Below, one piece after another: positions 4,385 to 26,151 of a stretch of DNA of 64,000 bases. Position 1 is the first letter of the stretch, and each line of letters opens with the position of its first letter. The position numbers and the translations under genes were made by a program. This DNA is from an uncultured Croceitalea sp. (lineage in GTDB: Bacteria; Bacteroidota; Bacteroidia; Flavobacteriales; Flavobacteriaceae): positions 744,001-808,000 of the forward strand of contig CANLXH010000001.1 of assembly GCA_947495075.1 (NCBI GenBank). Direction: 5' to 3'. A model generated the notes under the pieces. That model was not told where the DNA came from. It ran no database searches and worked only from the letters and a program-made list of their open reading frames with translations.

Positions 4385-4390
4385 GACGAT

Positions 4391-5803
4391 TTAATTGTTG
4401 TTTGCAGCCGAAGCCAAGAGTGCGTTTAAATTTTCTTTATCTAAAACCTGATTGCCTTTAATCACATAAGCAATGTTTTGGGTCTGTTTAATATCTTCTA
4501 TAGGGTTTTTGTTTAAAAGAACGATGTCCGCAACATTGCCCTCTATCAATCTGCCATAATCAGTATCTTTCTGTAAAAATTGAGACCCTTTATAGGCAGA
4601 ATTCTGTAAGGCTTGCAATGGAGAAATACCAACTTCAACCATGACCTCCAATTCTTTATGTAAAGAAATACCTGGATACGTGTAGGAGTTAAAAGCTCCA
4701 CTATCTGAACCTGCTAAAAGTGAAACCCCGGCATCTGACATAGTTTTGGCGAGTTCACCAAAAAAAGTATCCAATTCCTTACGGTTCTGAATTGTCTCAG
4801 GAGAAGAATTTTTCACTCTGTTGATTCTACCTTCATAGGTTTTTATAATACCACTGCCCATATATTTTAAGTATTCATCATTGCTGTGATTTACTTCATC
4901 CAAATAGCTCAACACTTTTCCAATATGTAGGGTAGGAATGGAATACACTTGTTTTTCTTTCATTGTTGAGAAAATATTTGCTGCTACAGATGTATCATAA
5001 GAGTTCTGTAACACAGGCATAGCTTGCCAAAAACCAATTTCTTTTTTACGTAGTTGTTCAGTAATCTGTACTTCTTGGCTAGAACAGCCTTTCATGATAT
5101 AATATAGGTGCTCTACACCATCTATGCCAGCATTAAAGGCATCATTTAGCTCAACAGTAAAAGGCATATGACCAGAAGTAATAATTCCTCTTTTTTCGGC
5201 TTCGACAATAGTATTTAAATATGCTTCCGCGCTAATGCGACTGTCATAGAGTTTTACATAGTCTGTTGGGATGCGTTGTAAAGAATCTAATGCTTTGGCG
5301 ATATCTTTTTTGTTTTCTACAACCAAAGAACCTGCCCAAGTGGCTTTAGGACCATCTAGTTTTGGACCTGATGTAAAAATTGTTGGTCCTAAGAGCTCTT
5401 CTTTTTCTATAGCATTTTTCCAATGTATTACCTGGGGTGTTAAATCGCCACCGGCATCACGCACGGTAGTAATTCCATTTGCTATAAAAAGTTTTAGCAA
5501 ATTTTTATTTGCAGCGATTAAAGAATCTCCACCCCTAAAATGCACGTGATTGTCCCAAAAACCAGGTACGGCGAATTTACCTTTAGCATTAATAATAATA
5601 TCTGCTTTGTAATAGGCATTTCCTTCTCCTTTTGTAATGATTTTGGTTATGCGACCATCCGTAATAAAGACATCTTTTTTTTCAATTTCACCTGTTGCAA
5701 TATCAATCAGGTTCACATTTTTTATAATGATATCGGATTTATCTGGTAAAGGAGGACAACCCCATAAAAAGAGACATCCAAATAGTACTAAAAATAGTCG
5801 CAT
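4391..5803 (-). CDS. Amidohydrolase lipoprotein
   Basis: A 470-residue amidohydrolase with lipobox LWGC (C16). Metal-site residues are H86-V-H88 in GFWDNHVHF, a lysine in TDYVKLYDS, histidines in TSGHMPF and GVEHLYY, and aspartate in LLAGSDSGAF. The C-terminal segment LIEGNVADIVLLNKNPIEDI matches the other two paralogues downstream. The middle third differs clearly from them, which suggests divergent substrates rather than a recent duplication. It is the first of the three tandem exported amidohydrolases and is separated by 32 bp from the CDP-alcohol transferase upstream, so it probably shares that transcript. Function beyond amide or lactam hydrolysis is inference. Confidence 0.87.
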   Translation of the reverse strand: MRLFLVLFGCLFLWGCPPLPDKSDIIIKNVNLIDIATGEIEKKDVFITDGRITKIITKGEGNAYYKADIIINAKGKFAVPGFWDNHVHFRGGDSLIAANKNLLKLFIANGITTVRDAGGDLTPQVIHWKNAIEKEELLGPTIFTSGPKLDGPKATWAGSLVVENKKDIAKALDSLQRIPTDYVKLYDSRISAEAYLNTIVEAEKRGIITSGHMPFTVELNDAFNAGIDGVEHLYYIMKGCSSQEVQITEQLRKKEIGFWQAMPVLQNSYDTSVAANIFSTMKEKQVYSIPTLHIGKVLSYLDEVNHSNDEYLKYMGSGIIKTYEGRINRVKNSSPETIQNRKELDTFFGELAKTMSDAGVSLLAGSDSGAFNSYTYPGISLHKELEVMVEVGISPLQALQNSAYKGSQFLQKDTDYGRLIEGNVADIVLLNKNPIEDIKQTQNIAYVIKGNQVLDKENLNALLASAANNN

Positions 5804-10174: not shown

Positions 10175-11437
10175 ATGAATAAGCCTTCTTGGTATTACCT
10201 GATACTTTTAATCCTTGCTGGCGAAGCAGTTTTTATTTTACCTTTTGTACTTCCTAGAATTTTTAGACCTACGGTTTTAGAAATTTTTCAGTTAGATAAC
10301 GTGGAGTTAGGTCTTTGCTTTTCGGTTTATGGAATTGTTGCTTTATTATCCTATTTAGTAGGAGGTCCTTTGGCAGATAAATTTCCACCTAGAAAATTGA
10401 TTGCAGTTGCATTATGGATGACAGCGGCAGGTGGTATTCTATTCGCAACTTATCCTAGCTTTAAAACATTACAGTTACTATATGGTTATTGGGGCTTTAC
10501 AACCATCTTTTTATTTTGGGCACCTATGATAAAGGCTACCAGAGTTTGGGGTGGTGAAAAATCTCAAGGAAAGGCCTTTGGTTTTTTAGATGGAGGAAGA
10601 GGATTAACAGGAGCTTTGTTCGGACTACTTGGGGTGTATATATTTTCATTATTTCTAGAAGAAGATGTGACTCAGGCATCTTTAGTAAATAGGCAAGAAG
10701 CTTTTACCTATGTAATTTATATCGCAGCAATTATTATATCTATTGTAGGGATATTGGTTTGGCTTTATATGAAATCTGGGATTAAAGAGTCAGAAATTCA
10801 ATTAGAAAAAATAACCGTTAAGCAGATAGGCGACGTTTTAAAAATACGATCAGTTTGGTTGTTAATGATAATTATTTTATGTGCTTATGTTGGTTATAAG
10901 ATTACAGATGTTCTTTCCTTATATGCCAAAGAAGTAATGAATTATGATGAGGTTGAATCTGCTAAAGTGGGTACTTTTTTACAATTTCTTCGCCCAACAA
11001 CTGGCATTATTGTAGGATTGTTAGTTGATAGATTCAGGATTACGTTTTGGTTATTATTAAGTTTTGTCTTTTGTGTTGTTGGAGGTATTTTGTTTGCTTC
11101 TGGTGTAATAGCACCATCAACTACTGCTTTATTCTTTATATCTGTTGTAATAATTGCTATTGGAGTTTATACAGCTAGGGCCTTATATTTTGGAGTAATG
11201 CAGGAAGGTAGAATTCCTTTGGTTCTAACGGGAACAGCTGTTGGATTAATATCTTTAGTTGGTTATACTCCAGATATTTTTGCAGGTCCAACTTATGGAT
11301 ATTTACTGGATTCTTATCCAGGTGAGCAAGGACATAAATATGTATTTTGGATGCTCACCGGATTTTCTTCTGTTGGGGCAATAGCAGCTTTTAGCTATTA
11401 TCGATTGTATCAAAAACAGCTATCGGGTATTTCTTGA
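10175..11437 (+). CDS. MFS transporter
   Basis: A 420-residue inner-membrane carrier with about twelve hydrophobic helices. The loop after helix 2 contains GGPLADKFPPRKL, the usual MFS motif A position (D, R, K). A central hydrophilic loop (IKESEIQLEKITVKQIG) separates the two halves. Family members exchange or co-transport small solutes; I cannot assign a subfamily or substrate. Its position facing an exported amidohydrolase and overlapping the end of the peptidase/nitrilase operon makes uptake of a hydrolysis product a reasonable idea, but that is inference. Its stop lies inside the last 18 bp of the convergent YdeI-like gene. Confidence 0.87.
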   Translation: MNKPSWYYLILLILAGEAVFILPFVLPRIFRPTVLEIFQLDNVELGLCFSVYGIVALLSYLVGGPLADKFPPRKLIAVALWMTAAGGILFATYPSFKTLQLLYGYWGFTTIFLFWAPMIKATRVWGGEKSQGKAFGFLDGGRGLTGALFGLLGVYIFSLFLEEDVTQASLVNRQEAFTYVIYIAAIIISIVGILVWLYMKSGIKESEIQLEKITVKQIGDVLKIRSVWLLMIIILCAYVGYKITDVLSLYAKEVMNYDEVESAKVGTFLQFLRPTTGIIVGLLVDRFRITFWLLLSFVFCVVGGILFASGVIAPSTTALFFISVVIIAIGVYTARALYFGVMQEGRIPLVLTGTAVGLISLVGYTPDIFAGPTYGYLLDSYPGEQGHKYVFWMLTGFSSVGAIAAFSYYRLYQKQLSGIS

Positions 11438-11992
11438 CTTTACTCCCTGTTTACAAAGAGAAATAATCTCATTAATTCGTTTTTGTCTAGTTTCTTCTCT
11501 TTTAGCTTGATTTAGCCAATACAGATAATTTTTACGTTGTCCTCGTGTATAGTTTTGATAGTTTTTTAAGGCTTTTGGGTTCTTGTTAAATGCTTCTTGT
11601 AGGTCCTTGGGAATTACGCCATTTTCTACATCATCCAGAGCTACCCATGAACCGTTTTTCTTTGCTATTTTAATAGAGAGGTATCCACTTTCATGAATAA
11701 GATCTGCTTTTTCCAATTCTTTTAAATGTTCTTTATTTACCCTACTCCAGACGCTTTTTGGTTTTCTAGGGCAGAAATATTGTCTGCGTTTACCATCATC
11801 TAAACTTTTTACAGTACTATCTATCCAACCATAACATAAAGCAACTCTTACGGCTTCTTCCCAACGCATACTGGGCATTTTATGCGCTATCTTATAAAAT
11901 ATGAGATAAATACCATTGGAAGAATTATGATTTATGTGTAACCATTGTCTAAACTCCGAATCATTTTTGAAATAGAGTTCTTGTTTTTCCAT
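11420..11992 (-). CDS. YdeI/OmpD-associated-like protein
   Basis: About 190 residues from the ATG at 11992. The longer open frame back to 12085 would run through the upstream gene, so I reject it. Typical family features are an aromatic N-terminus (FRQWLHINH), the W-x-E-A-V-x-x-A-L-C-Y-G-W-I-D-S block and the basic K-R-R-Q-Y-F-C-P-R-K-P-K-S-x-W-S motif, followed by a conserved Y-x-x-x-x-R-x-x-Y-L-Y-W-L segment near the C-terminus. Members of this family are linked to bacteriocin or envelope stress tolerance in some annotations, but no biochemical role is established. It starts 1 bp after the preceding stop and is the last gene of the long operon. Confidence 0.82.
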   Translation of the reverse strand: MEKQELYFKNDSEFRQWLHINHNSSNGIYLIFYKIAHKMPSMRWEEAVRVALCYGWIDSTVKSLDDGKRRQYFCPRKPKSVWSRVNKEHLKELEKADLIHESGYLSIKIAKKNGSWVALDDVENGVIPKDLQEAFNKNPKALKNYQNYTRGQRKNYLYWLNQAKREETRQKRINEIISLCKQGVKSRNTR

Positions 11993-11993
11993 G

Positions 11994-12797
11994 CTAAGAT
12001 TTTTTAAGTTCTTTTTGTAGACTATTAAAATAATCAAAAGCTTTAAGCAGTCGCGAGCCATACCAAGAGAAGTATTCTCCATCAACTAATTTAATAATCA
12101 CCTTAGGGAATTGTTTCTCTAATTCTTCTTTATGTTTAGCTTTAAATGGAAAAGGTTCAGAAGATAACAGTATATAATCAAGTTTTAATTTTTCTAACTC
12201 TTCTAGTGTTATTTCGGGATATCTTTCTTTTTCTTTATAAACGTTTTTAAGTTTATTAATATCTAACATATGGTCGATAAAAGTATCTCCGCCTACTACC
12301 ATGTATGGGTCTTTCCAGATAAAGTATGCGACTTTTTTGTAGCTATGATTTTGTGTAGATAGTTTGAATTTTTGTAGGTGTTCATTTATTTTAGAACATA
12401 TTTTTACAGCATTACTTTCTTTATTAAAGAGTAGGCCATATTGTTCTATCATTTCCAGTGCTTGTGAAATTGTCTCAACATTGGAAACATGAACAGGAAA
12501 TTCTTTTTCTAAAGTAGCAACAATTTCTTGCGTATTTTCCTCTTTATTACACAGGATAATATCTGGCTTTAGTTGCCTAATTGTATTAAAATTTACTTTT
12601 TTAGTGCCTCCAACTACTTTTTTATCCTTTCTTAGATGTTTGGGATGCACACAAAATTTAGTAATACCAACCAATTGTTCCTCTAAACCTAAATCTATAA
12701 TAGTTTCCGTCTGTGAAGGATTTAAGGAAATTATGCGCTTTGGGTATTGTTTAAAGGTGAGTGGTCTTCCTAATTGGTCCTTAACATTAATGTCCAT
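11994..12797 (-). CDS. Helical-backbone metal-receptor (BtuF-like) protein without signal peptide
   Basis: A 267-residue protein with the periplasmic-binding fold used for cobalamin and iron-siderophore receptors. The opening D-x-L-G-R-P-L-T-F...R-I-I-S-L-N-P-S-Q-T-E, then LKPDIILCNKE, the long backbone helix and LEKLKLDYILLSSEPFPF match the BtuF-like class III binding-protein pattern. Unusually, it begins MDINVKDQLGR with no signal peptide or lipobox, and no ABC permease or ATPase lies nearby. Such cytosolic relatives exist in Bacteroidota, but their ligand is uncertain. It starts 2 bp after the alcohol dehydrogenase stop, so it belongs to the same transcript. It may bind a cofactor or act as an enzyme; not determinable here. 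Confidence 0.8.
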   Translation of the reverse strand: MDINVKDQLGRPLTFKQYPKRIISLNPSQTETIIDLGLEEQLVGITKFCVHPKHLRKDKKVVGGTKKVNFNTIRQLKPDIILCNKEENTQEIVATLEKEFPVHVSNVETISQALEMIEQYGLLFNKESNAVKICSKINEHLQKFKLSTQNHSYKKVAYFIWKDPYMVVGGDTFIDHMLDINKLKNVYKEKERYPEITLEELEKLKLDYILLSSEPFPFKAKHKEELEKQFPKVIIKLVDGEYFSWYGSRLLKAFDYFNSLQKELKKS

Positions 12798-12799
12798 TA

Positions 12800-13840
12800 T
12801 TAAAACTGATTAATAACTTGAATCCCTTTAGATGTAAAATTGTCCATATTTGGTAAAGCATTTGGGACATCATTCAAGCTAATAGTATTTTCAACAAGCA
12901 ATTCTGGTTTTAGTTTTCCATTTAGAATCATATCCATCATGTTTGGATATTTATGAGCTTGCATGCCGTGACTACCTACAATTTCTAATTCGTTAGCTAT
13001 GACTAAATCCATAGGTATGTTAGGGTGTTTATGGTTACCTGTTACAAGACCAACTTGAACATGTCTTCCTCTTTTTTGAAGATTGGCGATTGAATTAAAA
13101 CAAGTTTCTGCACTCCCTAATGCATCCAGAGAGACATGGACGCCACCTTTAGTAAACTCTTTTACTTCTGAAACTACATTGGCACTTTCTTTTGCATTTA
13201 TAGTCATTACAGCCCCAAGTTTTTTTGCCAAATTCAGATTGTCAGGATTTATATCTATTGCAATAACTTTTGCTCCAAGCGCTTTTGCAATCATTATTGC
13301 AGAAAGACCTACACCTCCACAGCCATGCACAGCAACATAGTGTTGTTCTTTAACATCACCTTGCGCTACAACAGCCCTGTATGACGTAATAAACCTGCAA
13401 CCTAAAGTCGCAGCAGTGATATCTGAGATTTCATCAGGTAATTTAACCAAGTTAGTATCTGCAAAATCTAAAGAAACATATTCTGCAAAAGAACCCCAAT
13501 GCGTAAATCCTGGCTGAGATTGATTATCACAAACTTGTTGGTTATTGGAGATACATTGTTTACAACTACCACATCCACAAACAAATGGTACTGTAATCCG
13601 ATCATTCAAGGAAAACTTTTTTACATTTTTCCCCTTAGCAACTACCACTCCAGCTAATTCATGTCCGGGAACATGTGGTAATAAAATATCTGGGTCATGA
13701 CCCATCCACCCGTGCCAATCACTTCTGCAGAGTCCGGTTGCAGTTATTTTTACAACAACACCATCTTCTTTTGGCTTGGGTTCTGGCACATTTTTGATAG
13801 TAATAACTCCTTTGAACTCCTCAAAAACAGCAGCTTTCAT
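12800..13840 (-). CDS. Zinc-dependent alcohol dehydrogenase (MDR family)
   Basis: A 346-residue NAD(P)-dependent medium-chain dehydrogenase. Catalytic zinc ligands fit C38 ([10 protein letters not shown]) and H60-E61 (PGHELAG). The structural zinc lobe is complete, with cysteines at about 90, 93, 96 and 104 (CGCGSCKQC). The Rossmann loop is [11 protein letters not shown] followed by IAIDINPDN, whose acidic residue at the end of the second strand favours NAD over NADP. The reaction is reversible oxidation of an alcohol to an aldehyde or ketone. It overlaps the nitrilase by 4 bp (ATGA), so an aldehyde or alcohol intermediate linked to nitrile or acid chemistry is conceivable. Natural substrate unknown. 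Confidence 0.9.
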
Positions 13841-14766
13841 AAGTCTTTTTCCTTTTTTATTTCAGGTTGGTTATTTACTTTAAAATCAAAAATATCTTTT
13901 CTATTATAATGCCCATTTACATCAAAATCCATCTTACTGTGTACAATTTCGTCCAAATCTAATTCAGCAATAAGAATACCAGCTTCTCCAAATAATGGAC
14001 CCTCTAAAACCTTACCAAAGGGTGAAACTATAATACTACCTCCAGGGCACATATTTTCTGGTTCATCCTTAGCTAAAGACCGGTATTCTTTGGAATATAT
14101 CGATTTTGTAAAATACTGATTACAACCTAAAACAAAACATCTTCCTTCCAAAGCAATGTGTTTCATAGTGGCAGTCCATTCTTCTCTTGCGTCCGCAGTT
14201 GGAGCAATATAAATTTCTACGCCTTTTTTGAATATAGACATACGCGCTAGCGGCATATAGTTCTCCCAACAGATAAGCCCTCCTAGTTTTCCGATTTTGG
14301 TATTAAAAGTTACTAGAGATTCACCATCAGCTTCAGCCCAAATAACACGTTCTGTTCCAGTGGGTTTTATTTTTCTATGTACGCCCAACAATCCATCTGT
14401 AGGGGAGATATAGACCATACTGCAGTACAAGCTATTATTTTGCTCTTGTTTTTCTGTAATGCCTACTACCAAATAAGTATTATATTTTTTTGCTAATGAT
14501 AATAATCTATCCATGTCCTTACCGTTAAGGAACATGCTGTTTTCATAATATTTTGCATATAAGGCTTTACCTTCAGGAGTTCTACTACCTACTTTTGCAC
14601 CAAATAGAAATCCTCTGGGATAGCCAGGAACAAAAGATTCTGGAAATACAAGCAGATTACAGCCTTTTTTCGCACTGTTTTTTATCAGGCTTTCCATTTT
14701 ATCCAATGTTTTTTCTTTATCGAAAAAAACGGGACTGTCTTGGACCAAACCTACTTTTACTTTCAT
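13837..14766 (-). CDS. Nitrilase (carbon-nitrogen hydrolase family)
   Basis: A 309-residue cytosolic enzyme with the full Glu-Lys-Cys triad of the family: E43 in [12 protein letters not shown]132 in [11 protein letters not shown]166 in [11 protein letters not shown]. The CWENYMP block is characteristic of true nitrilases, which turn nitriles into carboxylic acid and ammonia, rather than of N-carbamoylputrescine amidases or aliphatic amidases. The [10 protein letters not shown] and [15 protein letters not shown] blocks support the same branch, and length is normal. It overlaps both neighbours by 4 bp (the TIKI-like gene before it, the alcohol dehydrogenase after it). The natural nitrile could come from an aldoxime or amino acid route, but none is visible here. 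Confidence 0.9.
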
Positions 14767-15554
14767 GGCTCAGTGATGGTTTTTAAAAAAGGTTCCATTT
14801 CTAAAAGTTTAATATCGTCTCTTTTACGAAGCTCACGTAAAAACCATCCTTTGTGTCCAGCACCGTAAACGATTAAAAAACGCTTTCCTTTGTAACGATG
14901 TTTTTCCAAGGCTTTTTCAATATTCCAGTAATGTGCAATATTTATATTTTCCCAGCCGCCTAGACCTAATTCTACATTAAATAACTTATTGTAGGTCTGT
15001 AAAGCAATATCTTGGATACTATCATACAAATTGGAGTGAATAAAATATGGATTATTAACTTTACCTGTAGCCTTATAAATAGAATCAGAACGTTTATTAG
15101 CTTCAACATAAGCTTTCCAATCTTCAATTCTGGTTGAATCTTTGCTAATGGCTCTTAACTGGTCACTTCTTCTATCTGCCATTGGTTTTGTCCATCCGGC
15201 AGTTGGTATAATTTCAAAATCTTGTTCTTTGGTCAGTGGAAAAATAACATCTACATATTCTGGAAAACGTAGTACTCTTGGTTCAGAAATACTATCATCT
15301 CTTTTAAAGCCTTTCATAGCTTCTCCCATTCTGTCTGGTGGAATCTCTGCTAAAATATAGTCTGGATTAATCTCTCGGATTAATCTATCTAGATAATTGA
15401 TATTGTATACGCTATCTGTTAAATGCCCGCTATGGATAGTTCCTAATACTAAAACCTCGTTCTTTGTTAGTTTTTCATTAGGCTTTGCGCTGTCTTTACA
15501 TGCAGTAAGAATTATGAAAAAACTTAAAATACCTATTTGAGTTACTATTCTCAT
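14763..15554 (-). CDS. TIKI/TraB-like lipoprotein (DUF5694-like)
   Basis: A 263-residue lipoprotein with the lipobox LTAC near residue 19. The three hallmarks of the TIKI/TraB superfamily seem present: the G-x-x-H box in LVLGTIHSGH, the E-x-x-x-R box in LAEIPPDRMG, and a late histidine in VYGAGHKGWF. Proteins of this superfamily are thought to be metal-dependent proteases or hydrolases, but the bacterial members are mostly uncharacterised. It overlaps the arginase-like gene and the nitrilase gene by 4 bp each, so it is tightly co-translated. A second member of the same family is encoded at 41126-42001 after the serine-hydrolase array. Substrate unknown. Confidence 0.7.
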   Translation of the reverse strand: MRIVTQIGILSFFIILTACKDSAKPNEKLTKNEVLVLGTIHSGHLTDSVYNINYLDRLIREINPDYILAEIPPDRMGEAMKGFKRDDSISEPRVLRFPEYVDVIFPLTKEQDFEIIPTAGWTKPMADRRSDQLRAISKDSTRIEDWKAYVEANKRSDSIYKATGKVNNPYFIHSNLYDSIQDIALQTYNKLFNVELGLGGWENINIAHYWNIEKALEKHRYKGKRFLIVYGAGHKGWFLRELRKRDDIKLLEMEPFLKTITEP

Positions 15555-16357
15555 TTCATTAATAAATTTATGATTTTAGTAATAGGAAGTAATTCTTCTG
15601 CCTTTGTAGTTATGGATTCTAATACACTGCTTCCAACAACTTTAAATTGTTTTTGGAGCCTTATAATGCATTCTTCAGCCTCTTTAATCCTTAAACCATC
15701 TGGAACTTTGTAATAAGTTTTATCATAATCGGTTGGTTCTAAACAATCAAAATCGAAATGTAGGTATAAGTTAGTAATTCCTTTATCCTTCAGTATTTTA
15801 ATTAACTCAGTAATATTCAGTTTTTTTGGTGCATAGATATTTCCTTGATTAATTCTTATTTGCTCCATTTCATCAATATCTCGTAAACCAACATAATGTA
15901 TTTGTGAAGAAGCTATGGTAGAGCTCAGTAATGGATTCATATGTGGTTCTCCTTCTCCTAATAAGGTTCGTAGTGGCATACCATGAAAATTACAACTGGT
16001 TGAATCACAAGGTTTATTGATATCTGCATGAGCATCAAACCAAATGACTCCTAAATTTGGATATTTTTTATTGAGATAGGAGACAGGTACTATTTCTAAG
16101 CCACAATCACCTCCTATAATTTTGAGCGTTTCAGGATTTTCTTCTTCTATAGACTCTTTGAGACGTGAAAGCTGCTCAATAATAGCTTCATAATTATTAA
16201 TACTATGTTGCTGTTTTCCATATTCTCCTGCACTAATTTTAGAAAGTGGAATTGGAATAAAACTATCATCATTTAAATAATCTAATACCGTTTTGGCTCC
16301 TGGTTCGATAGCAGTACCAGTTCCAGAACCTTGCCATTGCGGAAAATAAATTTTCAT
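15551..16357 (-). CDS. Arginase/agmatinase-family protein with altered metal ligand
   Basis: A 268-residue ureohydrolase-fold protein. The family motifs are WFDAHADIN (D108, H110, D112) and HFDFDCLEP (D202, D204), which hold the two manganese ions. The first motif reads IGGDCGLEI instead of the classical GGDHS, so the usual metal-A histidine is a cysteine at position 84. Such variants occur in an uncharacterised arginase-like clade, so arginase activity should not be assumed. The reaction, if retained, would be hydrolysis of a guanidino, amidino or formimino group. The start ATG shares one base with the M1 peptidase stop (TAATG), and the end overlaps the TIKI-like gene by 4 bp. Confidence 0.82.
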   Translation of the reverse strand: MKIYFPQWQGSGTGTAIEPGAKTVLDYLNDDSFIPIPLSKISAGEYGKQQHSINNYEAIIEQLSRLKESIEEENPETLKIIGGDCGLEIVPVSYLNKKYPNLGVIWFDAHADINKPCDSTSCNFHGMPLRTLLGEGEPHMNPLLSSTIASSQIHYVGLRDIDEMEQIRINQGNIYAPKKLNITELIKILKDKGITNLYLHFDFDCLEPTDYDKTYYKVPDGLRIKEAEECIIRLQKQFKVVGSSVLESITTKAEELLPITKIINLLMK

Positions 16358-17979
16358 TAAAGCGCTTTGGTATTAATGTAGAAGTTACGGTTGATTTCTA
16401 ATTTGCCACTCATAGTTTCTGTTTTCCATTCTGAAGTTGGGAAGAGCCACTTTTCTTTATTATCCATGGTAACACGAACAGGCATGTCAAAACCTTTAAT
16501 TATGTTGATGTAACGATATTTGAGCTTAGAATCTTCAGTTTTATACTCTAAAGTGGGAATCTTTATTGTTCTTAAATATTGTTCGAAAAATTCCGTTAAG
16601 TCGATACCCGTTTCTTGAGAAAGAAAGGATTCTATTTGTTCCGTAGTTACTGTTTGGTGATAGAATTTTTTATTCATTCCTCTTAAAACGTTACGCCACT
16701 TTTCATCATCTTCAATAAGTTGCCTTAATGTGTGCAAAATGTTGGCACCTTTGTAATACATATCTCCGGAACCCTTTTTGTTAAGATTATAGCGCCCAAT
16801 AATTGGTTTGTCATTTCTAATATTGGCTCTAGTACCAATAACATAATCTGCAGCAGCTTCTTTACCAAAATGGTAATCCAAGTACAGGTTTTCTGAGTAT
16901 GCTGTAAAACCTTCATGAATCCACATGTCTGCTATATCCTTATAGGTGATATTATTTGCAAACCATTCATGACCCGCTTCGTGAATTATAATGAAGTCAA
17001 ATTTTAAACCCCAACCAGTTCCTGAAAGGTCGTTCCCCAAATATCCATTTTGATACTTGTTGCCATAAGTAACTGAGCTTTGATGTTCCATTCCCAAGTA
17101 GGGTACCTCTACCAGTTTAAATCCATCTTCATAAAAAGGGTAGGGACCAAACCAATGTTCAAAAGCTTCCATCATCTTTGCGGTTTGCTTAAACTGTTTT
17201 TTGGCTTTTTTTAGATTATCGCGAAGAACATAATAATCTAAATCTAATTCCCCTTTTTCTCCAGGGTACTTTTCACTATAATGCACATAGTCTCCCATAT
17301 TTACATTAACCCCATAATTATTTATAGGGTTATTTACAAACCAATGGTACGTTTTAGTATGCTCATTTTCATCTACTTTACGTAATCTTCCGTTAGAAAC
17401 ATTCGTCAAATCTTTTGGTGTGGTAATACTTATGGCCATACTATCAACCTCGTCATACATATGGTCTTTATTGGGCCACCAAACACTTGCGCCAAGACCT
17501 TGACAAGAAGTAGCCACAAAATGGTTATCGTTATTGTCCTTTTTCCAAGAAAAACCACCATCCCAAGGTGCTCTTACCGCTTCTTTAGGATAACCAGAAT
17601 AGTAAACTTCTATTTCGTTAAAATCTCCTTCTTCTTGTTTTTTATCTAACAATATTAAATGTACATTACCACTGCTTTTAAAAGAGAGTTCCTCATCATC
17701 ACTCATTACTTTTTCAATCTTCATTGGTGGTTGCAGGTCTATTTGCATGATTTGCTTAGATTTTAAAACCTTGTAGCGTATCGTATTTTTTCCTGATATA
17801 TATTTTTTATCAGGCTCTACTTCTATATCTAAATGGTAATAATTTAAGTCCCACCATTCTCTCTCTGGAGTAATACTACCTCTTAAATAATCTGCTTTAG
17901 TGTAACTGGTGTCTTCTTTTTGTGCGCAAAGGCTACTAGTAATAAATAATGCAGCTATTATTCTCTTAATTCTACCCAT
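16357..17979 (-). CDS. M1-family zinc aminopeptidase, exported
   Basis: A 540-residue exported metallopeptidase. A short signal peptide ends near LCAQ. The zinc site is H333-E-A-G-H337 with the third ligand E356 (WIHEGFTAYSE), the standard M1 spacing. The exopeptidase motif reads GMEH rather than the common GAMEN (residues 296-299), a variation frequent in bacterial secreted M1 enzymes. The N-terminal beta domain lies before residue 230 and the C-terminal part is short, without the long helical domain of PepN. It removes N-terminal residues from peptides outside the cytoplasm. Its ATG lies directly after the stop of the M28 peptidase, so the two are likely made together. Confidence 0.9.
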   Translation of the reverse strand: MGRIKRIIAALFITSSLCAQKEDTSYTKADYLRGSITPEREWWDLNYYHLDIEVEPDKKYISGKNTIRYKVLKSKQIMQIDLQPPMKIEKVMSDDEELSFKSSGNVHLILLDKKQEEGDFNEIEVYYSGYPKEAVRAPWDGGFSWKKDNNDNHFVATSCQGLGASVWWPNKDHMYDEVDSMAISITTPKDLTNVSNGRLRKVDENEHTKTYHWFVNNPINNYGVNVNMGDYVHYSEKYPGEKGELDLDYYVLRDNLKKAKKQFKQTAKMMEAFEHWFGPYPFYEDGFKLVEVPYLGMEHQSSVTYGNKYQNGYLGNDLSGTGWGLKFDFIIIHEAGHEWFANNITYKDIADMWIHEGFTAYSENLYLDYHFGKEAAADYVIGTRANIRNDKPIIGRYNLNKKGSGDMYYKGANILHTLRQLIEDDEKWRNVLRGMNKKFYHQTVTTEQIESFLSQETGIDLTEFFEQYLRTIKIPTLEYKTEDSKLKYRYINIIKGFDMPVRVTMDNKEKWLFPTSEWKTETMSGKLEINRNFYINTKAL

Positions 17980-19311
17980 TTATCTAAAAATTTTATTTGG
18001 AAAAACTACCATGCTTTCATGTCCATCCTTGCCAACAGCAGCAACTCCAAAGAAGTAATTATCAATAACTATTCCGTCAAGTATTGCTGAAGTTACATTG
18101 CCAACATATCTGTGGTTGTCCCAAGTTGGAGAAGTAGTATCTCTCCAATATATTTTATAACCAGTTGCACCATCAACTTTATTCCATTTAAGTTTAGCTG
18201 AAGGCTCAACAATACCACCAATTTCAACAGTTTCTGGGGAAGAAGGTGCCCAAGCGATAGATGCCAAGTTTATAGCATTTACAGCGGTAAGTTTTTTAGC
18301 ATACTCAAAATTTACATGTTCTAATACATCACCGTATGCAATTCCGTCTTCAACCCGGATATCTTGATGCTGCTGGGTATAATTTTCATGGGATTCCATA
18401 ATACGAATTCCTGCAAAACCAGCATCATTAAATGGTCTGTGATGTCCACCACGACCAAACCTATCTAGGCGATAAATCATTGTAGGGTTCATTTCTGGCA
18501 TGTAAGTTTTTGTTGTTTTGTATACATAACGCGCTAACTGACGTGATATGCCGTCTACTTCACCACCATAAAATCGTCTAGCTCTTCGTTGACGTTCAGT
18601 TTCAGTAGGTGGAACTGGTTCTGAAAAAATTCTAAAATCACGATTACTTATTACTCCATCAACACCAGTAATATTACCTATCATATCGTTATTAATAATC
18701 CCTGCAATATCCCATCTCTTTTCTTTAGCATATGCTGCGAGACCCTGTCCTCCAAAAAGTCCCTGTTCTTCACCAGAAAGACCAACAAAAAGAATACTGC
18801 TTTCAAAATCATATTTAGATAAAACTCTGGCTGCCTCAATAGTTCCAGCCATACCACTAGCATTATCGTTAGCTCCAGGAGATTCAGATGTGAAATCCGC
18901 CGGATCGCTAACACGAGAATCAATATCACCACTCATAATTATATAGCAATTAGGATATTTAGTACCTCTTTTAACAGCTAAAACATTTACTACCCACACA
19001 TCTTTAACAATACGTGCATTAGTGCCTTTTTTCACCAAGTCTTTCTGGTAAGAGATTTCTAGGCAATTTTCACAAGCTGTACTTATTTTTTCAAACTCAT
19101 TTTTTATCCATCTCCTTGCTGCTCCAATACCTCTTGTTTGAGATACAGTATCACTCAAGGTGTGTCTGGTTCCAAAATTTGTAAGTGTAGTTATGTCTTT
19201 TTCTATTCGTTCGGCAGATACAGCATTGATAATATCATAGATACGTGAGTCCGTTTGTCCTGCGAGATTTATAGTTAAAAAGAACAATCCAATAAAAAAT
19301 ATTTTCTTCAT
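17980..19311 (-). CDS. M28-family zinc peptidase with C-terminal FnIII domain
   Basis: About 443 residues from ATG 19311; the frame extends upstream, but that part overlaps the preceding gene. The signal peptide is MKKIFFIGLFFLTINLAGQ. Zinc-site candidates are the aspartate in SGDIDSRVSD, D in GANDNASG, the paired acid in LSGEEQG, D in NNDMIGN and H in MESHENY. The order fits M28 aminopeptidases. The last roughly 90 residues (VEPSAKLKWNKVDGATGYKIYW) form a fibronectin type III domain, a common substrate- or surface-binding add-on. It starts 1 bp after the TMEM175-like gene and ends next to the M1 start, forming a peptide-degrading pair. Confidence 0.88.
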   Translation of the reverse strand: MKKIFFIGLFFLTINLAGQTDSRIYDIINAVSAERIEKDITTLTNFGTRHTLSDTVSQTRGIGAARRWIKNEFEKISTACENCLEISYQKDLVKKGTNARIVKDVWVVNVLAVKRGTKYPNCYIIMSGDIDSRVSDPADFTSESPGANDNASGMAGTIEAARVLSKYDFESSILFVGLSGEEQGLFGGQGLAAYAKEKRWDIAGIINNDMIGNITGVDGVISNRDFRIFSEPVPPTETERQRRARRFYGGEVDGISRQLARYVYKTTKTYMPEMNPTMIYRLDRFGRGGHHRPFNDAGFAGIRIMESHENYTQQHQDIRVEDGIAYGDVLEHVNFEYAKKLTAVNAINLASIAWAPSSPETVEIGGIVEPSAKLKWNKVDGATGYKIYWRDTTSPTWDNHRYVGNVTSAILDGIVIDNYFFGVAAVGKDGHESMVVFPNKIFR

Positions 19312-19312
19312 C

Positions 19313-19936
19313 TTAATCAATTTTAAATTTTTTGTAAAAAACATAACTATGAAGCCCGCAAAAAGGACCTAATAAGCTATATATTATGCCAGGAAGGCCG
19401 TAATGTATGCCAATTTGTGAGTATGCAATAAGTATTGATAATACTGCAACTAGAAAGAATATAGCAAAATGACGGACGTAAAAAAGCAAGTGTATTGCAT
19501 GCGTTAAATGCATAGTTTTTTTATATGCTCTATAGTACATAAGAGATAAACACAAAAAAATAAGTGCAAAGCCTAATCCATAAAGCTCAAAAAGTCCAGC
19601 TAGCCTTTCAGGGGTCATTCCTTTGGTAACAAACCAAGAATTAATCAATGATTTTAACGGAAAAACATAATATAGGACTACAAAGAGGAGCACAGCATTT
19701 ATTGCGATAATGGCATTATCCATATAGTCTGTTCTTCTAAAAAAATTGTAATGGAGATACCATAGTAGAACTAATACAAAAAAACTAACTGCGAAACCTA
19801 CAAAGGATTTTATATCTACCTCAATAATAGAATCTGAATTATCTATACCTAAAGAAACTACGAGTAGTGTAGCCGCAAAAGCAAATACAGCATCGCTGAA
19901 GGCTTCAATTCTAGAAATATTATGTGGGAATTTCAC
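19313..19936 (-). CDS. TMEM175-like potassium channel (DUF1211)
   Basis: A 207-residue membrane protein with about six hydrophobic helices. The first helix carries the family motif R-x-x-x-F-S-D as R9, F13, S14, D15 (RIEAFSDAVFAFAATLLVV). Bacterial TMEM175 proteins of this length form tetrameric potassium-selective channels in studied cases. The start is GTG at 19936; no in-frame ATG gives the conserved motif, so the assignment is firm. It lies 9 bp after the propeller-SnoaL gene and 1 bp before the M28 peptidase. Its role in this operon is unclear; it could adjust ion balance or simply ride along. Confidence 0.86.
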   Translation of the reverse strand: MKFPHNISRIEAFSDAVFAFAATLLVVSLGIDNSDSIIEVDIKSFVGFAVSFFVLVLLWYLHYNFFRRTDYMDNAIIAINAVLLFVVLYYVFPLKSLINSWFVTKGMTPERLAGLFELYGLGFALIFLCLSLMYYRAYKKTMHLTHAIHLLFYVRHFAIFFLVAVLSILIAYSQIGIHYGLPGIIYSLLGPFCGLHSYVFYKKFKID

Positions 19937-19945
19937 TATGGAAAT

Positions 19946-21136
19946 TTATTGAATAAAAGTGACTTTGGCAATTTTACCATTCTCTACTTCATAAATAGCC
20001 ACTGCGCTAAAGTTTTGTCCATTTGCAGTAATATATTCTTCATCTATCACTTTATTTCCAATAACGATTCGGTTTTTTATTTCGCAATTTAAATCAGGAG
20101 TAGCATCAAAATATGATGCATAGCTCGCGCGCATCTTTTGCTGACCTTGAAATAATTCTTTATTTGGGAAGTTTATTAAGGTTATATTATCGGTATACGT
20201 GGCCATAAAAGCATCTATATCTCTGGCATTGTATGCATCTAACTGTTTTTGTACTATTTTGGCTGGTGATTCCTCAGCCACAAATGCTAATCGTTTGGAA
20301 TTTTCACTTATAGCAATCCTAGTGATGTTGTTAATCTCATCTTCTTTAAAATATTGTATCTGCTCCCATTGAACATCTGAATTTGGATTGATTCGTAGTA
20401 TGGATTTACCATCCCCGGTTAAAATGCTTCCATCTTTTAACCAACAGATATCTTCAGATTTTCCATAAGTGTTTACTATGTTTTTTATGGCTCCTGTTAT
20501 TGGGTTTAAAGATTTAATTTGCCATGAATTCTCTTCTTTACTTATAAAACTTACTAAATCTGTATTTGGAATTTTCGATAAGCTGCGGCCTACATTTTTT
20601 TGAAATGTGTAGTTAGTTTTATCTTTTAAGTTGCTCACTACCAAATCCATTCTGTTCTCTATTAATACAGTAGTAACCAGAATATGTTCATTGTACCATA
20701 CATGATAGCCAACTTTTTGATTTTTTAAAATTGGTTTAGAATTACCTGTTTTAATATCATATTGATAAAGTCTTTGTAGTCCATCTAAATCTAATCGTAT
20801 TGCAGATACTGCATTTTTATTTGGGATTTTTAGCGGAGAGTATTCACTACCTGTTGGAGTGTCAGAAATCCAAGAGCTAATACTTCCTGCTTCAATATTA
20901 AAAAGACGAATATCTGTTTGGTCTGATCTTGTAGATGAAAACAAAACAGAAGTATCATTTAAAAAAGATGGTTGATTATCATAGCCATCATTATTAGAAA
21001 TATTCTTTGGGTTAGATAGTTCTACCTTATTATTTTTAATATTTAAATCAAAAACATAAACATCTGTGTTAGGTTGAGCTTGTATGTAAAGGGTAGTGCT
21101 AAAAAAAACACCAATACAAATTCTTTTAATATTCAT
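19946..21136 (-). CDS. Exported propeller protein fused to a SnoaL-like domain
   Basis: A 396-residue exported protein. The signal peptide ends around YIQAQ. Residues about 30-280 contain loose TolB/PD40 blades (NQPSFLNDTSVLFSSTRSDQTDIRLF, written here in pieces as NQPSFLND and VLFSSTRSD). Residues about 285-396 form an NTF2/SnoaL-like cone: IVQKQLDAYNARDIDAF, YTDNITLINFP, FQGQQKMRASYA and AVAIYEVENGKI. The SnoaL fold can be enzymatic or just bind a ligand; no catalytic pair is obvious. The fusion is unusual and the role unknown. It lies between the decarboxylase (70 bp away) and the TMEM175-like gene (9 bp). Confidence 0.75.
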   Translation of the reverse strand: MNIKRICIGVFFSTTLYIQAQPNTDVYVFDLNIKNNKVELSNPKNISNNDGYDNQPSFLNDTSVLFSSTRSDQTDIRLFNIEAGSISSWISDTPTGSEYSPLKIPNKNAVSAIRLDLDGLQRLYQYDIKTGNSKPILKNQKVGYHVWYNEHILVTTVLIENRMDLVVSNLKDKTNYTFQKNVGRSLSKIPNTDLVSFISKEENSWQIKSLNPITGAIKNIVNTYGKSEDICWLKDGSILTGDGKSILRINPNSDVQWEQIQYFKEDEINNITRIAISENSKRLAFVAEESPAKIVQKQLDAYNARDIDAFMATYTDNITLINFPNKELFQGQQKMRASYASYFDATPDLNCEIKNRIVIGNKVIDEEYITANGQNFSAVAIYEVENGKIAKVTFIQ

Positions 21137-21206
21137 CTTGGAGAAAATTGGTTGACTTTTTAATTATAGTGTGATATGAAGATATCAATTTTAGAATAAA
21201 AGGAAT

Positions 21207-22637
21207 TTAAGAAATTGTATGAGCTACAGTAACAATTTTGTCTAACAATTGATTTAAATGTTCTGGTGTAGTGAAAGGATTCATTAAAGAAGTTCTTAGA
21301 TAGTGCGTTCCTCTAAGTTTGGTTTGGACCAAATAAAATTCTCCATCTTCCAATAAAACTTGGCGAATAGTAGCATTTAATAAATTTAGTTCTTCAGGAC
21401 TTTTTGATTTATCTATATATCTAAAACATAAAATGTTGGACATTGGCGCAGCTGCAATTTCAAAATTTGGGTTGTTACCAATTAGTATTTCAAATTCTTT
21501 TGCTAAATCATATTGATTAGTGACAAATTCATTAAAGAGGCTTTCTCCATAAAACTTAAAAAGAATATACCAATGCATACACATCATAGTTTTGGTGCAT
21601 TCAAAAGTTTTTTTACCACTATTTATCCAGTCATCTTCTTCTACATCATTAAGTAAGTAATCTGCTTTTTGGCTAAATGTGTTTTGAGCATTTAACTTGT
21701 CTTTAAAAAGTAAAGCTGTTGTTAATGCAGGCATCAGCATCATTTTATGACCATCTATCACCACAGAATCTGACTTTTCTATGCCCTTTAATAAATATTT
21801 GTACTTATCTGAATAAATAGCTGCGCCGCCATGAGCGCCATCTACATGGAACCACAAATTCTTTTCTAAGGCAAAATTTGCTATGGAATCTAAATCGTCA
21901 TAAGCTCCAGTTGCCGTGGAAGGAGCACTCCCAACTATAGCGAAAATCTTAATTCCTTTTGAAGATGCTTCTTGATATGCTTTCTCTAGCTGAGAGATAT
22001 CCATAGAAAAATCCTGATTAGAAGGTATTTTTATAATTCCTTTTTCGCCTAACCCCATAATTTTAGCAGCTCTATCAATACAATAATGAGCTTGTTCACA
22101 TACCATTACCCCCAATGGTTCATTGTACCCGTGGTTCCATACATCGTGTTTAATTTTTGCTTTTCTAGCTGATAGTAAGGCAGTTAAATTAGCTAAAGTG
22201 CCTCCGGAAGTTAGAAGCCCACTAGATTGATTGTCATAACTTATTTTGCGACAGATAAGATCTGTAACTACCTTTTCTATAGCAGATGAGGCCATACCCA
22301 TTTCATAAACTGCCATGCCATTATTTAATAAAGCACTAGTCATTGCAGTTAGTATGGTAATTGGAGCTGGTGCGGATACCTGATGCCCAGTATATTTTGG
22401 ATGGTGCGTATGGGTAGTTCGGCTTAAAATTTCAGGAAAGAAATTTTCTTTTTTTCCTTCTTCCAGAAAAGCGTTCCAGAACTGTAATTCTTTAACTGGT
22501 GTATTCCAGACTAGTGTTTTAGGATTAACCCCAGTTGTAGTATTCTCTATATGTTTGGAAATATAAGAAAGTAATTTCTCTCCCTGCTTCTTAAATTGTT
22601 TGGGAGAGTACAATTTTTCAAATAATGAATTGCTCAT
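21207..22637 (-). CDS. PLP-dependent group II amino-acid decarboxylase
   Basis: A 476-residue fold-type I PLP enzyme. The cofactor lysine is K298 in VVIDGHKMM, preceded by the aspartate D266 in WFHVDGAHGG that contacts the pyridine nitrogen, with H184 in CEQAHYC stacking on the ring. Glycine-rich TSGGTLANL binds the phosphate. This fits the glutamate/aspartate/aromatic/2,4-diaminobutyrate decarboxylase group, which removes carbon dioxide from an L-amino acid to give an amine; I cannot choose the substrate. It is the first gene of the eleven-gene unit, 70 bp before the next gene and preceded by the terminator of the fatty-acid operon, so a promoter should lie in 22638-22682. Confidence 0.88.
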   Translation of the reverse strand: MSNSLFEKLYSPKQFKKQGEKLLSYISKHIENTTTGVNPKTLVWNTPVKELQFWNAFLEEGKKENFFPEILSRTTHTHHPKYTGHQVSAPAPITILTAMTSALLNNGMAVYEMGMASSAIEKVVTDLICRKISYDNQSSGLLTSGGTLANLTALLSARKAKIKHDVWNHGYNEPLGVMVCEQAHYCIDRAAKIMGLGEKGIIKIPSNQDFSMDISQLEKAYQEASSKGIKIFAIVGSAPSTATGAYDDLDSIANFALEKNLWFHVDGAHGGAAIYSDKYKYLLKGIEKSDSVVIDGHKMMLMPALTTALLFKDKLNAQNTFSQKADYLLNDVEEDDWINSGKKTFECTKTMMCMHWYILFKFYGESLFNEFVTNQYDLAKEFEILIGNNPNFEIAAAPMSNILCFRYIDKSKSPEELNLLNATIRQVLLEDGEFYLVQTKLRGTHYLRTSLMNPFTTPEHLNQLLDKIVTVAHTIS

Positions 22638-22682: not shown

Positions 22683-22710
22683 AAAAAAACCGCCCCATAT
22701 TGGAACGGTT
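22683..22710 (-). terminator. Rho-independent terminator of the beta-oxidation operon
   Basis: On the minus strand a 9-bp stem (plus arms 22688-22696 and 22702-22710, two G-U pairs) with a 5-nt loop is followed by a run of uridines (plus 22683-22689 is all A). It sits 30 bp after the acyl-CoA dehydrogenase stop and separates that operon from the decarboxylase gene. Confidence 0.85.
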
Positions 22711-22739
22711 CTTCAAGCTTCTGTCTCAAGCTATTTGAA

Positions 22740-25776: not shown

Positions 25777-26151
25777 TTAGTATTGAGTATTTAGTTCAGT
25801 TTTAATTAAAGATTTTTGAAAACTATAATTCATTTTTTGAACCTCAATACACAAATCAATAATAGGTTGTACTTTTTCTTTATCAATTAAATTTAACTCA
25901 ACTACCATTATTAGTTGAGTCTGTAGTTCATAAGCAGAGCCATTAGCAATACTCATAAAGTGTTTAAATTCTTTTTGAGAATTTCTTCCCGCACCTTCAG
26001 CTATATTTGACGGTATCGAGACGGAACTTCTTTTGATTTGAGAAGTAAGTCCAAATTTTTCATCTTTTGGCAATTCAGAAACAAGCGAGTAGACTTTTTT
26101 TACAAGTTCTATAGATTTATCCCAAATTTTAAGATTTTCAACTTTGTGCAT
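25777..26151 (-). CDS. Four-helix bundle protein (S23-like)
   Basis: A 124-residue protein of the four-helix-bundle/23S rRNA intervening-sequence protein family. It opens KVENLKIWDKSIELVKKVY and contains the conserved FGLTSQIKRSSVSIPSNIAEGAGR segment (read here as FGLTSQIKRS and SIPSNIAEGAGR), followed by a helix ending LIEV-like. Such genes are found both inside rRNA intervening sequences and scattered singly in Bacteroidota genomes; function is unknown, with a proposed pentameric bundle. It sits inside the beta-oxidation operon between the fadB-like and thiolase genes, with repeats at both ends, and looks like an inserted cassette in a frame-neutral position. Start ATG 26151. Confidence 0.9.
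   Translation of the reverse strand: MHKVENLKIWDKSIELVKKVYSLVSELPKDEKFGLTSQIKRSSVSIPSNIAEGAGRNSQKEFKHFMSIANGSAYELQTQLIMVVELNLIDKEKVQPIIDLCIEVQKMNYSFQKSLIKTELNTQY

What the first reader, a model, noticed from the sequence alone, without database searches (positions are those of the whole stretch)
11420..22637. Eleven-gene tightly coupled operon of amine, nitrile, guanidine and peptide chemistry
Seen: eleven minus-strand genes run from the PLP decarboxylase to the YdeI-like gene. Nine of ten junctions are 9 bp or less, with four overlaps: three of 4 bp and one of 1 bp. The only larger gap is 70 bp after the first gene. Contents: amino-acid decarboxylase, propeller-SnoaL, TMEM175-like channel, M28 and M1 peptidases, arginase-like protein, TIKI-like lipoprotein, nitrilase, alcohol dehydrogenase, metal-receptor-like protein, YdeI-like protein. 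I know of no described pathway with this set. Inference: exported peptidases release a residue or modified amino acid that is decarboxylated and processed through nitrile or guanidino steps, with ammonia release.
Basis: partly seen in the sequence, partly recalled or inferred. Interest (0 to 1): 0.72.

Follow-up and report, generated by a model that had tools for sequence, protein, structure and literature searches.

The report
Peptidase gene string grown by accretion
Eleven tightly packed genes in a marine bacterium do form one gene string, but comparison with relatives shows an old peptidase core that collected extra genes over time, including a small reshuffling set of nitrilase, arginase-like and alcohol dehydrogenase genes, rather than one eleven-step pathway.

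Summary
The one-pathway reading is not borne out. In 78 M28-centred loci, one per Flavobacteriaceae genus, FadE lies within about 10 kb upstream in 65, M1 occurs in 51 and YdeI in 45, but Arg, TIKI, Nit and ADH in only 3, 2, 2 and 1. A terminator-like hairpin follows FadE in 54 of 65. The decarboxylase looks like a late neighbour: in 10 of 12 loci with it upstream, an opposite-strand GH15 gene and a trehalose-synthesis gene separate it from M28; no copy of the latter was found in this genome. Best reading: a peptidase locus with a reshuffling amide/nitrile/guanidino module; structure well supported, chemistry inferred. Oddities: Cys for a Mn-ligand His (arginase-like), Asp for a Zn-ligand His (M28).

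The parts
21207..22637 (-). PLP group II amino-acid decarboxylase; late neighbour, not part of the conserved unit
   Evidence: PF00282 176 bits; nearest solved chains belong to the diaminobutyrate decarboxylase/transaminase-named and other group II decarboxylases; separated from M28 by GH15(-) and OtsBA in 10 of 12 loci
22684..22714 (-). Terminator-like hairpin after FadE, upstream of the block
   Evidence: 14-pair stem plus T run; a hairpin meeting similar rules follows FadE in 54 of 65 relatives, 0-1 of 65 in each of 10 shuffles
21137..21206 (-). 70-bp gap: probable scar of the loss of GH15 and OtsBA genes
   Evidence: OtsBA found in 6 of 8 genomes of the genus, not in the window genome or G005 (G005 is 54% complete); the same decarboxylase-Snoa junction in G005; OtsBA and GH15 families by Pfam
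19946..21136 (-). PD40-propeller plus SnoaL-domain protein (Snoa), exported by eye
   Evidence: PF12680, PF07676; 35 of 78 M28 loci
19313..19936 (-). TMEM175-family membrane protein
   Evidence: PF06736 59.4 bits; 6 of 78 M28 loci
17980..19311 (-). M28 peptidase (signal peptide by eye), core of the locus
   Evidence: PF04389; in 108 of 149 genera; Asp at the first Zn-ligand His position in 105 of 105 sequences
16357..17979 (-). M1 peptidase (signal peptide by eye), core of the locus
   Evidence: PF01433; HEAGH-x18-E visible in the translation; 51 of 78 M28 loci
15551..16357 (-). Arginase-fold protein with Cys at one Mn-ligand position; module gene
   Evidence: PF00491; Cys85 in 79 of 80 homologs; predicted fold matches arginase, TM 0.82; 6 of 149 genera
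14763..15554 (-). TIKI/DUF5694-like lipoprotein (lipobox by eye); module gene
   Evidence: PF18950 below cut-off; 6 of 149 genera, all 6 also with Nit and ADH
13837..14766 (-). NIT4-type nitrilase; module gene
   Evidence: PF00795; best solved relative is plant NIT4, E 1.3e-85; 19 of 149 genera
12800..13840 (-). Zinc alcohol dehydrogenase; module gene
   Evidence: PF08240, PF00107; 17 of 149 genera, 13 of them with Nit
11994..12797 (-). Helical-backbone metal receptor (BtuF-like) without an evident signal peptide; recent add-on
   Evidence: NF038402 149.3 bits, cut-off 30; 0 of 78 M28 loci
11420..11992 (-). YdeI/OmdA-domain protein, core of the locus
   Evidence: PF13376; 45 of 78 M28 loci
4391..5803 (-).
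   Evidence: PF01979; ortholog adjacent to ADH, Nit or TIKI in L218, L222, L234
3014..4384 (-). Amidohydrolase AHB (exported by eye)
   Evidence: PF01979; orthologs downstream of ADH in L062, L088, L067, L070, L234
1768..3045 (-). Amidohydrolase AHC (group of Xaa-Pro dipeptidase, Arg carboxypeptidase, ochratoxinase)
   Evidence: nearest solved chains E 3e-58 to 1e-52; orthologs in L067, L070, L234

Best explanation
The block is a Flavobacteriaceae peptide-processing locus that grew by accretion. Shown by comparison: a widespread core, M28-M1-YdeI, lies downstream of the fad genes, which end in a terminator-like hairpin. In a few lineages four genes (arginase-like, TIKI-like lipoprotein, NIT4-type nitrilase, zinc ADH) recur in this core, mostly between M1 and YdeI, and in three genomes they sit together elsewhere, beside dipeptidase-like amidohydrolases. 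The window species and G005, its closest relative by identity among those examined, share a junction that puts the decarboxylase next to Snoa, where most other members of the genus have GH15 and the trehalose-synthesis gene OtsBA. Inferred: the exported peptidases and amidohydrolases trim peptides or amides outside the cytoplasm; the arginase-like, nitrilase and ADH enzymes handle released amide, nitrile or guanidino by-products inside. The decarboxylase, Snoa, TMEM175 and BtuF-like genes are cargo sharing the string rather than pathway steps.
For: 78 M28-centred loci, same strand, within about 10 kb: FadE 65 (34 of them within 5 kb), M1 51 (47 within 5 kb), YdeI 45 (37 within 5 kb), Snoa 35, OtsBA 27, decarboxylase 13, TMEM175 6, Arg 3, TIKI 2, Nit 2, ADH 1, BtuF 0. 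Terminator-like hairpin after FadE 54 of 65 vs 0-1 in each of 10 shuffles. Minimum state changes on the M28 gene tree (103 tips, quick method): Arg 12, TIKI 10, Nit 7, ADH 10, decarboxylase 11. OtsBA in 6 of 8 genomes of the genus, none found in G000 or G005; decarboxylase-Snoa-TMEM175 contiguous in G005. Module: in 149 genera Nit and ADH together in 13 (2.17 expected), Arg and TIKI in 5 (0.24). Linkage away from M28: ADH-TIKI-Nit-AHA (L218), Nit-ADH-AHA (L222), TIKI-ADH-AHA-AHB-AHC (L234). 4-bp overlaps at 7 of 15 Arg-TIKI and 5 of 7 Nit-ADH junctions (a few genomes counted twice). Families.
Against: Module co-occurrence is not significant on supported independent branches (77 genera; Nit/ADH 4.5 same, 0-0.1 opposite of 5 pairs, median p 0.0625-0.125; Arg with the others 0.25). 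Where fetched away from the core, Nit stands alone in 13 loci and ADH in 10. TIKI occurs without Arg in one genus, G085. Amidohydrolase genes follow the core in 6 of 75 M28 loci that lack the module and in 0 of 3 that have it within reach, and occur in 5 of 28 loci centred on Nit or ADH outside the M28 set, so they may belong to the core as much as to the module. M28 and the arginase-like protein each lack a canonical metal ligand, so their activity is not assured. No substrate was tested.
Confidence: 0.6

Rival explanations
1. Pure hitch-hiking: the locus is an insertion-tolerant site and the added genes share nothing but expression; module co-occurrence reflects shared habitat or ancestry.
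For: Varied other cargo near Arg in relatives, including GNAT, intradiol-dioxygenase-like, TIR, M20, M23 and DUF4440 proteins (Pfam); 36 distinct gene strings in 69 loci (two places counted twice, contig ends included); weak tree-corrected statistics.
Against: Subsets of the same four genes are contiguous in three loci away from M28; TIKI is not seen without Arg in the 103-tip locus set (0 of 18; that set was partly sampled by Arg); junction overlaps recur.
Confidence: 0.28
2. One eleven-gene pathway: exported peptidases release an amino acid that is decarboxylated and then processed through nitrile or guanidino steps.
For: Eleven genes tightly packed with overlaps; module genes co-occur; two exported peptidases; raw association of the decarboxylase with Nit and ADH.
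Against: Decarboxylase separated from the unit by an opposite-strand gene in 10 of 12 loci, with no consistent direction in the 4 supported independent pairs; the core occurs without Arg, TIKI, Nit and ADH in 75 of 78 loci; no equivalog cut-off met by decarboxylase, arginase-like protein or nitrilase.
Confidence: 0.07
3. Cyanide or beta-cyanoalanine detoxification: the NIT4-type nitrilase converts 3-cyanoalanine to aspartate and ammonia, and the neighbours are accessory.
For: Closest solved relative is plant NIT4 (E 1.3e-85, next nitrilase 1e-46); [quoted passage not shown]
Against: Gives no role to TIKI, ADH or amidohydrolases. In PMC8567248 NitC, not Nit4, is the nitrilase required for growth on 3-cyanoalanine in that Pseudomonas (section title and passages). 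I did not search for cyanoalanine synthase or cyanide-resistance genes.
Confidence: 0.05

Closest known systems
Operon growth by gene insertion and neighbour deletion (operon life-cycle idea; recalled, the paper I asked for is not held)
   Same: Conserved core with lineage-specific insertions, reordering, and a new 5' gene brought close by loss of the genes between
   Different: Here an overlapping four-gene set recurs in the same core in several genera, and in part elsewhere, rather than only single unrelated genes
Xaa-Pro dipeptidase / Arg carboxypeptidase / ochratoxinase-type amidohydrolases (2QS8, 3MTW, 3BE7, 4C5Y)
   Same: AHC matches 2QS8 5.8e-55, 3MTW 1.1e-52, 3BE7 9.5e-46, 4C5Y 2.5e-27 (its very best hits, 9KOV and LlADH, are amide hydrolases whose substrate I only recall); AHA and AHB match the same group more weakly
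   Different: NCBIfam Xaa-Pro dipeptidase cut-off not met (283.7 vs 500); sometimes linked to nitrilase and ADH
Arginase (ureohydrolase) family
   Same: Fold (TM 0.82 to 5ZEE), PF00491, five of six metal-ligand positions (roles recalled)
   Different: First ligand His is Cys in 79 of 80 homologs; rocF cut-off not met
NIT4-type nitrilase
   Same: Best solved match; the stretches that hold the catalytic residues align
   Different: Bacterial, in a peptidase locus; substrate untested; Nit6803 equivalog cut-off not met (173.4 vs 502.6)
M28 aminopeptidase (3B3T, bacterial leucyl aminopeptidase)
   Same: PF04389; the other checked metal-ligand and catalytic positions conserved in 105 of 105
   Different: Asp in place of the first Zn-ligand His in all 105

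Membership tests
Arginase | Pfam arginase domain and fold | tested here: met
   PF00491 79.9 bits, cut-off 22; Foldseek best E 3.2e-18
Arginase | All six Mn ligands, including the His of GGDH | tested here: not met
   Cys at that position in 79 of 80 homologs, the best 80 of 523 confirmed; ligand identities recalled
Arginase | Equivalog score | tested here: not met
   TIGR01229 93.3 vs cut-off 227.6
NIT4 nitrilase | Catalytic Glu-Lys-Cys stretches | tested here: met
   Aligned (roles recalled)
NIT4 nitrilase | Activity on 3-cyanoalanine | not testable with these tools
   needs assay
M28 aminopeptidase | Canonical Zn ligands | tested here: not met
   Asp for the first His in 105 of 105 sequences (some genomes twice); other positions conserved (aligned to 3B3T)
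M1 aminopeptidase | HExxH-x18-E | tested here: met
   HEAGH...E in translation; PF01433 63 bits
Group II PLP decarboxylase | Pyridoxal_deC domain | tested here: met
   PF00282 176.2 bits
Aspartate (PanP) or diaminobutyrate decarboxylase | Equivalog score | tested here: not met
   198.5 vs 606.1 and 166.9 vs 900
TIKI/TraB-like | Domain or fold match | tested here: inconclusive
Single operon | One transcript over eleven genes | not testable with these tools
   needs RNA; only spacing and lack of an exact promoter match are known

The most novel reading that the evidence does not exclude
Arginase-like protein, TIKI-like lipoprotein, NIT4-type nitrilase, ADH and the exported amidohydrolases AHA-AHB-AHC are an undescribed, reshuffling catabolic module of marine Flavobacteriaceae for an amide-, nitrile- or guanidino-bearing peptide-derived substrate, using a Cys-liganded arginase-fold enzyme with a new reaction.
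Probability: 0.2. Interest if true: 0.7.

Novelty: new variant of a known kind. Interest (0 to 1): 0.4.

Why it matters
It shows how a gene string that reads like a pathway can be sorted by comparison into an old core, a recurring subset and recent cargo, which is the error that operon-based function guesses risk. It also names a small testable set of enzymes (Cys-type arginase-fold protein, NIT4-type nitrilase, ADH, amidohydrolases) whose shared substrate, if any, is unknown, and gives genomes where parts of that set stand apart from the peptidases (G161, G154, G085) and so can be studied without the rest.

Tried and rejected
Rejected: the decarboxylase as founder of the string (opposite-strand GH15 between it and the core in 10 of 12 loci). 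Rejected as less likely: fad genes and block as one transcription unit (hairpin after FadE).

Literature: searched for the cluster, its enzymes or flavobacterial gene order; the two that listed papers (53: three; 86: two) showed none about this locus in titles and abstract openings. Searches looked for operon-evolution papers (listings only), for NIT4. That I found no description in print rests only on these searches of an open-access library.

Biases: the 33 flavobacterial loci were chosen by Arg (patterns, best 80 kept), so Arg-based counts in the 103-tip set are inflated; the 78 M28-centred loci and the 149 genera were not chosen by Arg. Of the 108 M28-positive genomes, one is the window's and I analysed 76 others; G003 (the window's genus) and G022 make 78. 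Some fetched regions are cut by contig ends, so presences are lower bounds. From the tree two duplicate loci (L059, L085) were dropped; 103 rows remained and the length limit of 250 aa removed none. Other repeats remain: the same places appear as L158/L244 and L183/L245, and some genomes twice. The tree is a gene tree by a quick method. The shuffles kept dinucleotides where the generator succeeded and otherwise were plain. The output was cut; one search repeated the summary for five of its ten genes.
Full report
Observation. The eleven genes are there as described, on the minus strand, with junctions 70, 9, 1, 0, -1, -4, -4, -4, 2, 1 bp. The packing is tighter than elsewhere in the window: 9 of 10 junctions at 10 bp or less, against 11 of 37 (P 9e-4). 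Family labels hold for ten genes; the TIKI-like gene matches DUF5694 just below its cut-off. The genus is probably Croceitalea: contig G001:C1, from a genome listed as same genus, has the length and hit position of a record titled uncultured Croceitalea.

Core. I searched the M28 protein in 149 genera of the family, one genome each; 108 have a match at E 1e-100 or better, the window included. I then analysed 78 loci centred on it, one per genus: 76 of those genomes plus G003, of the window's genus, and G022. Within about 10 kb on the same strand FadE occurs in 65 of 78, M1 in 51, YdeI in 45, Snoa in 35, OtsBA in 27, the decarboxylase in 13, TMEM175 in 6, Arg in 3, TIKI in 2, Nit in 2, ADH in 1 and the BtuF-like gene in none. 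Within 5 kb the figures are FadE 34, M1 47 and YdeI 37. Contig ends make these lower bounds. The simplest and commonest layout is FadD-MarR-FadB-FadA-FadE, then M28-M1-YdeI. A terminator-like hairpin follows FadE in 54 of 65 cases, against 0 or 1 of 65 in each of 10 shuffles, so the core is probably its own transcription unit.

Decarboxylase. Of the 13 loci with it, 12 have it upstream of M28, and in 10 of those 12 an opposite-strand GH15 gene with a trehalase-like N-terminus and a trehalose-6-phosphate synthase/phosphatase gene (OtsBA) lie between (families by Pfam). OtsBA was found in 6 of 8 genomes of the genus, not in the window genome (99.99% complete) or in G005 (54% complete). In G005 the decarboxylase, Snoa and TMEM175 genes are contiguous as in the window. 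So the 70-bp junction looks like the scar of a deletion shared by these two. On the tree, only 4 supported pairs differ in the decarboxylase and they show no consistent link with Arg, TIKI, Nit or ADH, though the raw counts do with Nit and ADH (6 and 5 of 12 carriers).

Module. In the 149 genera Arg occurs in 6, Nit in 19, TIKI in 6 and ADH in 17 (thresholds E 1e-60, 1e-90, 1e-60, 1e-120). Nit and ADH coincide in 13 (2.17 expected), Arg and TIKI in 5 (0.24), Arg and ADH in 6 (0.68), TIKI and Nit in 6 (0.77), TIKI and ADH in 6 (0.68), Arg and Nit in 5 (0.77). Corrected for ancestry on the M28 tree (77 genera) the direction is nearly always the same, but only 3 to 5 supported pairs remain and no test reaches 0.05. 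Physical linkage is better evidence: away from M28, parts of the set appear as ADH-TIKI-Nit-AHA, Nit-ADH-AHA and TIKI-ADH-AHA-AHB-AHC. Against this, 13 fetched loci hold Nit alone and 10 hold ADH alone, and G085 has TIKI without Arg. Orders vary widely: 36 distinct strings in 69 loci. Overlaps of 4 bp recur at 7 of 15 Arg-TIKI and 5 of 7 Nit-ADH junctions.

Outside the coordinates. The three amidohydrolases at 1768-5803 are orthologs (about 60-72% identity) of those after YdeI in Flagellimonas (L067, L070) and after TIKI-ADH in L234. They also follow the core in 6 of 75 M28 loci without the module, in 0 of 3 M28 loci with it (within the stretch fetched), and occur in 5 of 28 loci centred on Nit or ADH, so they may belong to the core as much as to the module. 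AHC is nearest to a group that includes Xaa-Pro dipeptidase, arginine carboxypeptidase and, further off, ochratoxinase.

Enzymes. The nitrilase is nearest to plant NIT4 among solved chains (E 1.3e-85; next 1e-46). NIT4-type enzymes act on 3-cyanoalanine, though in the Pseudomonas of PMC8567248 NitC and not Nit4 is needed for growth on it (passages seen). The arginase-like protein has the arginase fold (model pLDDT 87.6; TM 0.82) but Cys in place of a Mn-ligand His in 79 of 80 homologs, including actinobacterial ones. The M28 protein has Asp for the first Zn-ligand His in 105 of 105 sequences. Ligand roles are recalled, and signal peptides were judged by eye.

Mechanism. Shown by comparison: a widespread core, later additions, a late decarboxylase, and recurrent linkage among the four module genes. 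Inferred: exported peptidases and amidohydrolases trim peptides or amides, and cytoplasmic module enzymes handle by-products. I give the structural account about 0.8 and the functional part well under that; 0.6 overall.

Verdict. A real, well-packed gene string; not, on this evidence, an eleven-step pathway; a small recurring enzyme set within it deserves study.

Noticed in passing
15551-16357 (residue 85): Arginase-fold protein with Cys at the GGDH metal-ligand position; Cys in 79 of 80 homologs from Bacteroidota, actinobacteria and others.
   Followed up: partly
17980-19311 (residue 129): M28 peptidase with Asp where the first Zn-ligand His is expected, invariant in 105 flavobacterial sequences.
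   Followed up: partly
25777-26151: 23S-rRNA-intervening-sequence-type (IVP) gene inside the fad genes; IVP matches occur in 17 of 78 relatives' loci at differing positions among the fad genes.
   Followed up: no
1768-5803: Three tandem amidohydrolases, orthologous to ones beside Nit, ADH or TIKI in other genera.
   Followed up: yes
11420-11437: YdeI and the convergent MFS gene overlap tail to tail by 18 bp.
   Followed up: no
21137-21206 and L217: The decarboxylase-Snoa gaps of the window and of G005 share the string TGATATCTTCATAT.
   Followed up: no
L050 11661-12457: TIKI gene of G033 is split into two overlapping reading frames, possibly broken.
   Followed up: no
75-1154: ORF with ricin-type beta-trefoil lectin domains.
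   Followed up: no
11994-12797: BtuF-like metal receptor has no evident signal peptide, so is probably cytoplasmic (by eye).
   Followed up: no
L139-L216: A trehalase-like GH15 gene and OtsBA, facing away from each other, are a common insertion between FadE and M28 (OtsBA in 27 of 78; Pfam).
   Followed up: partly
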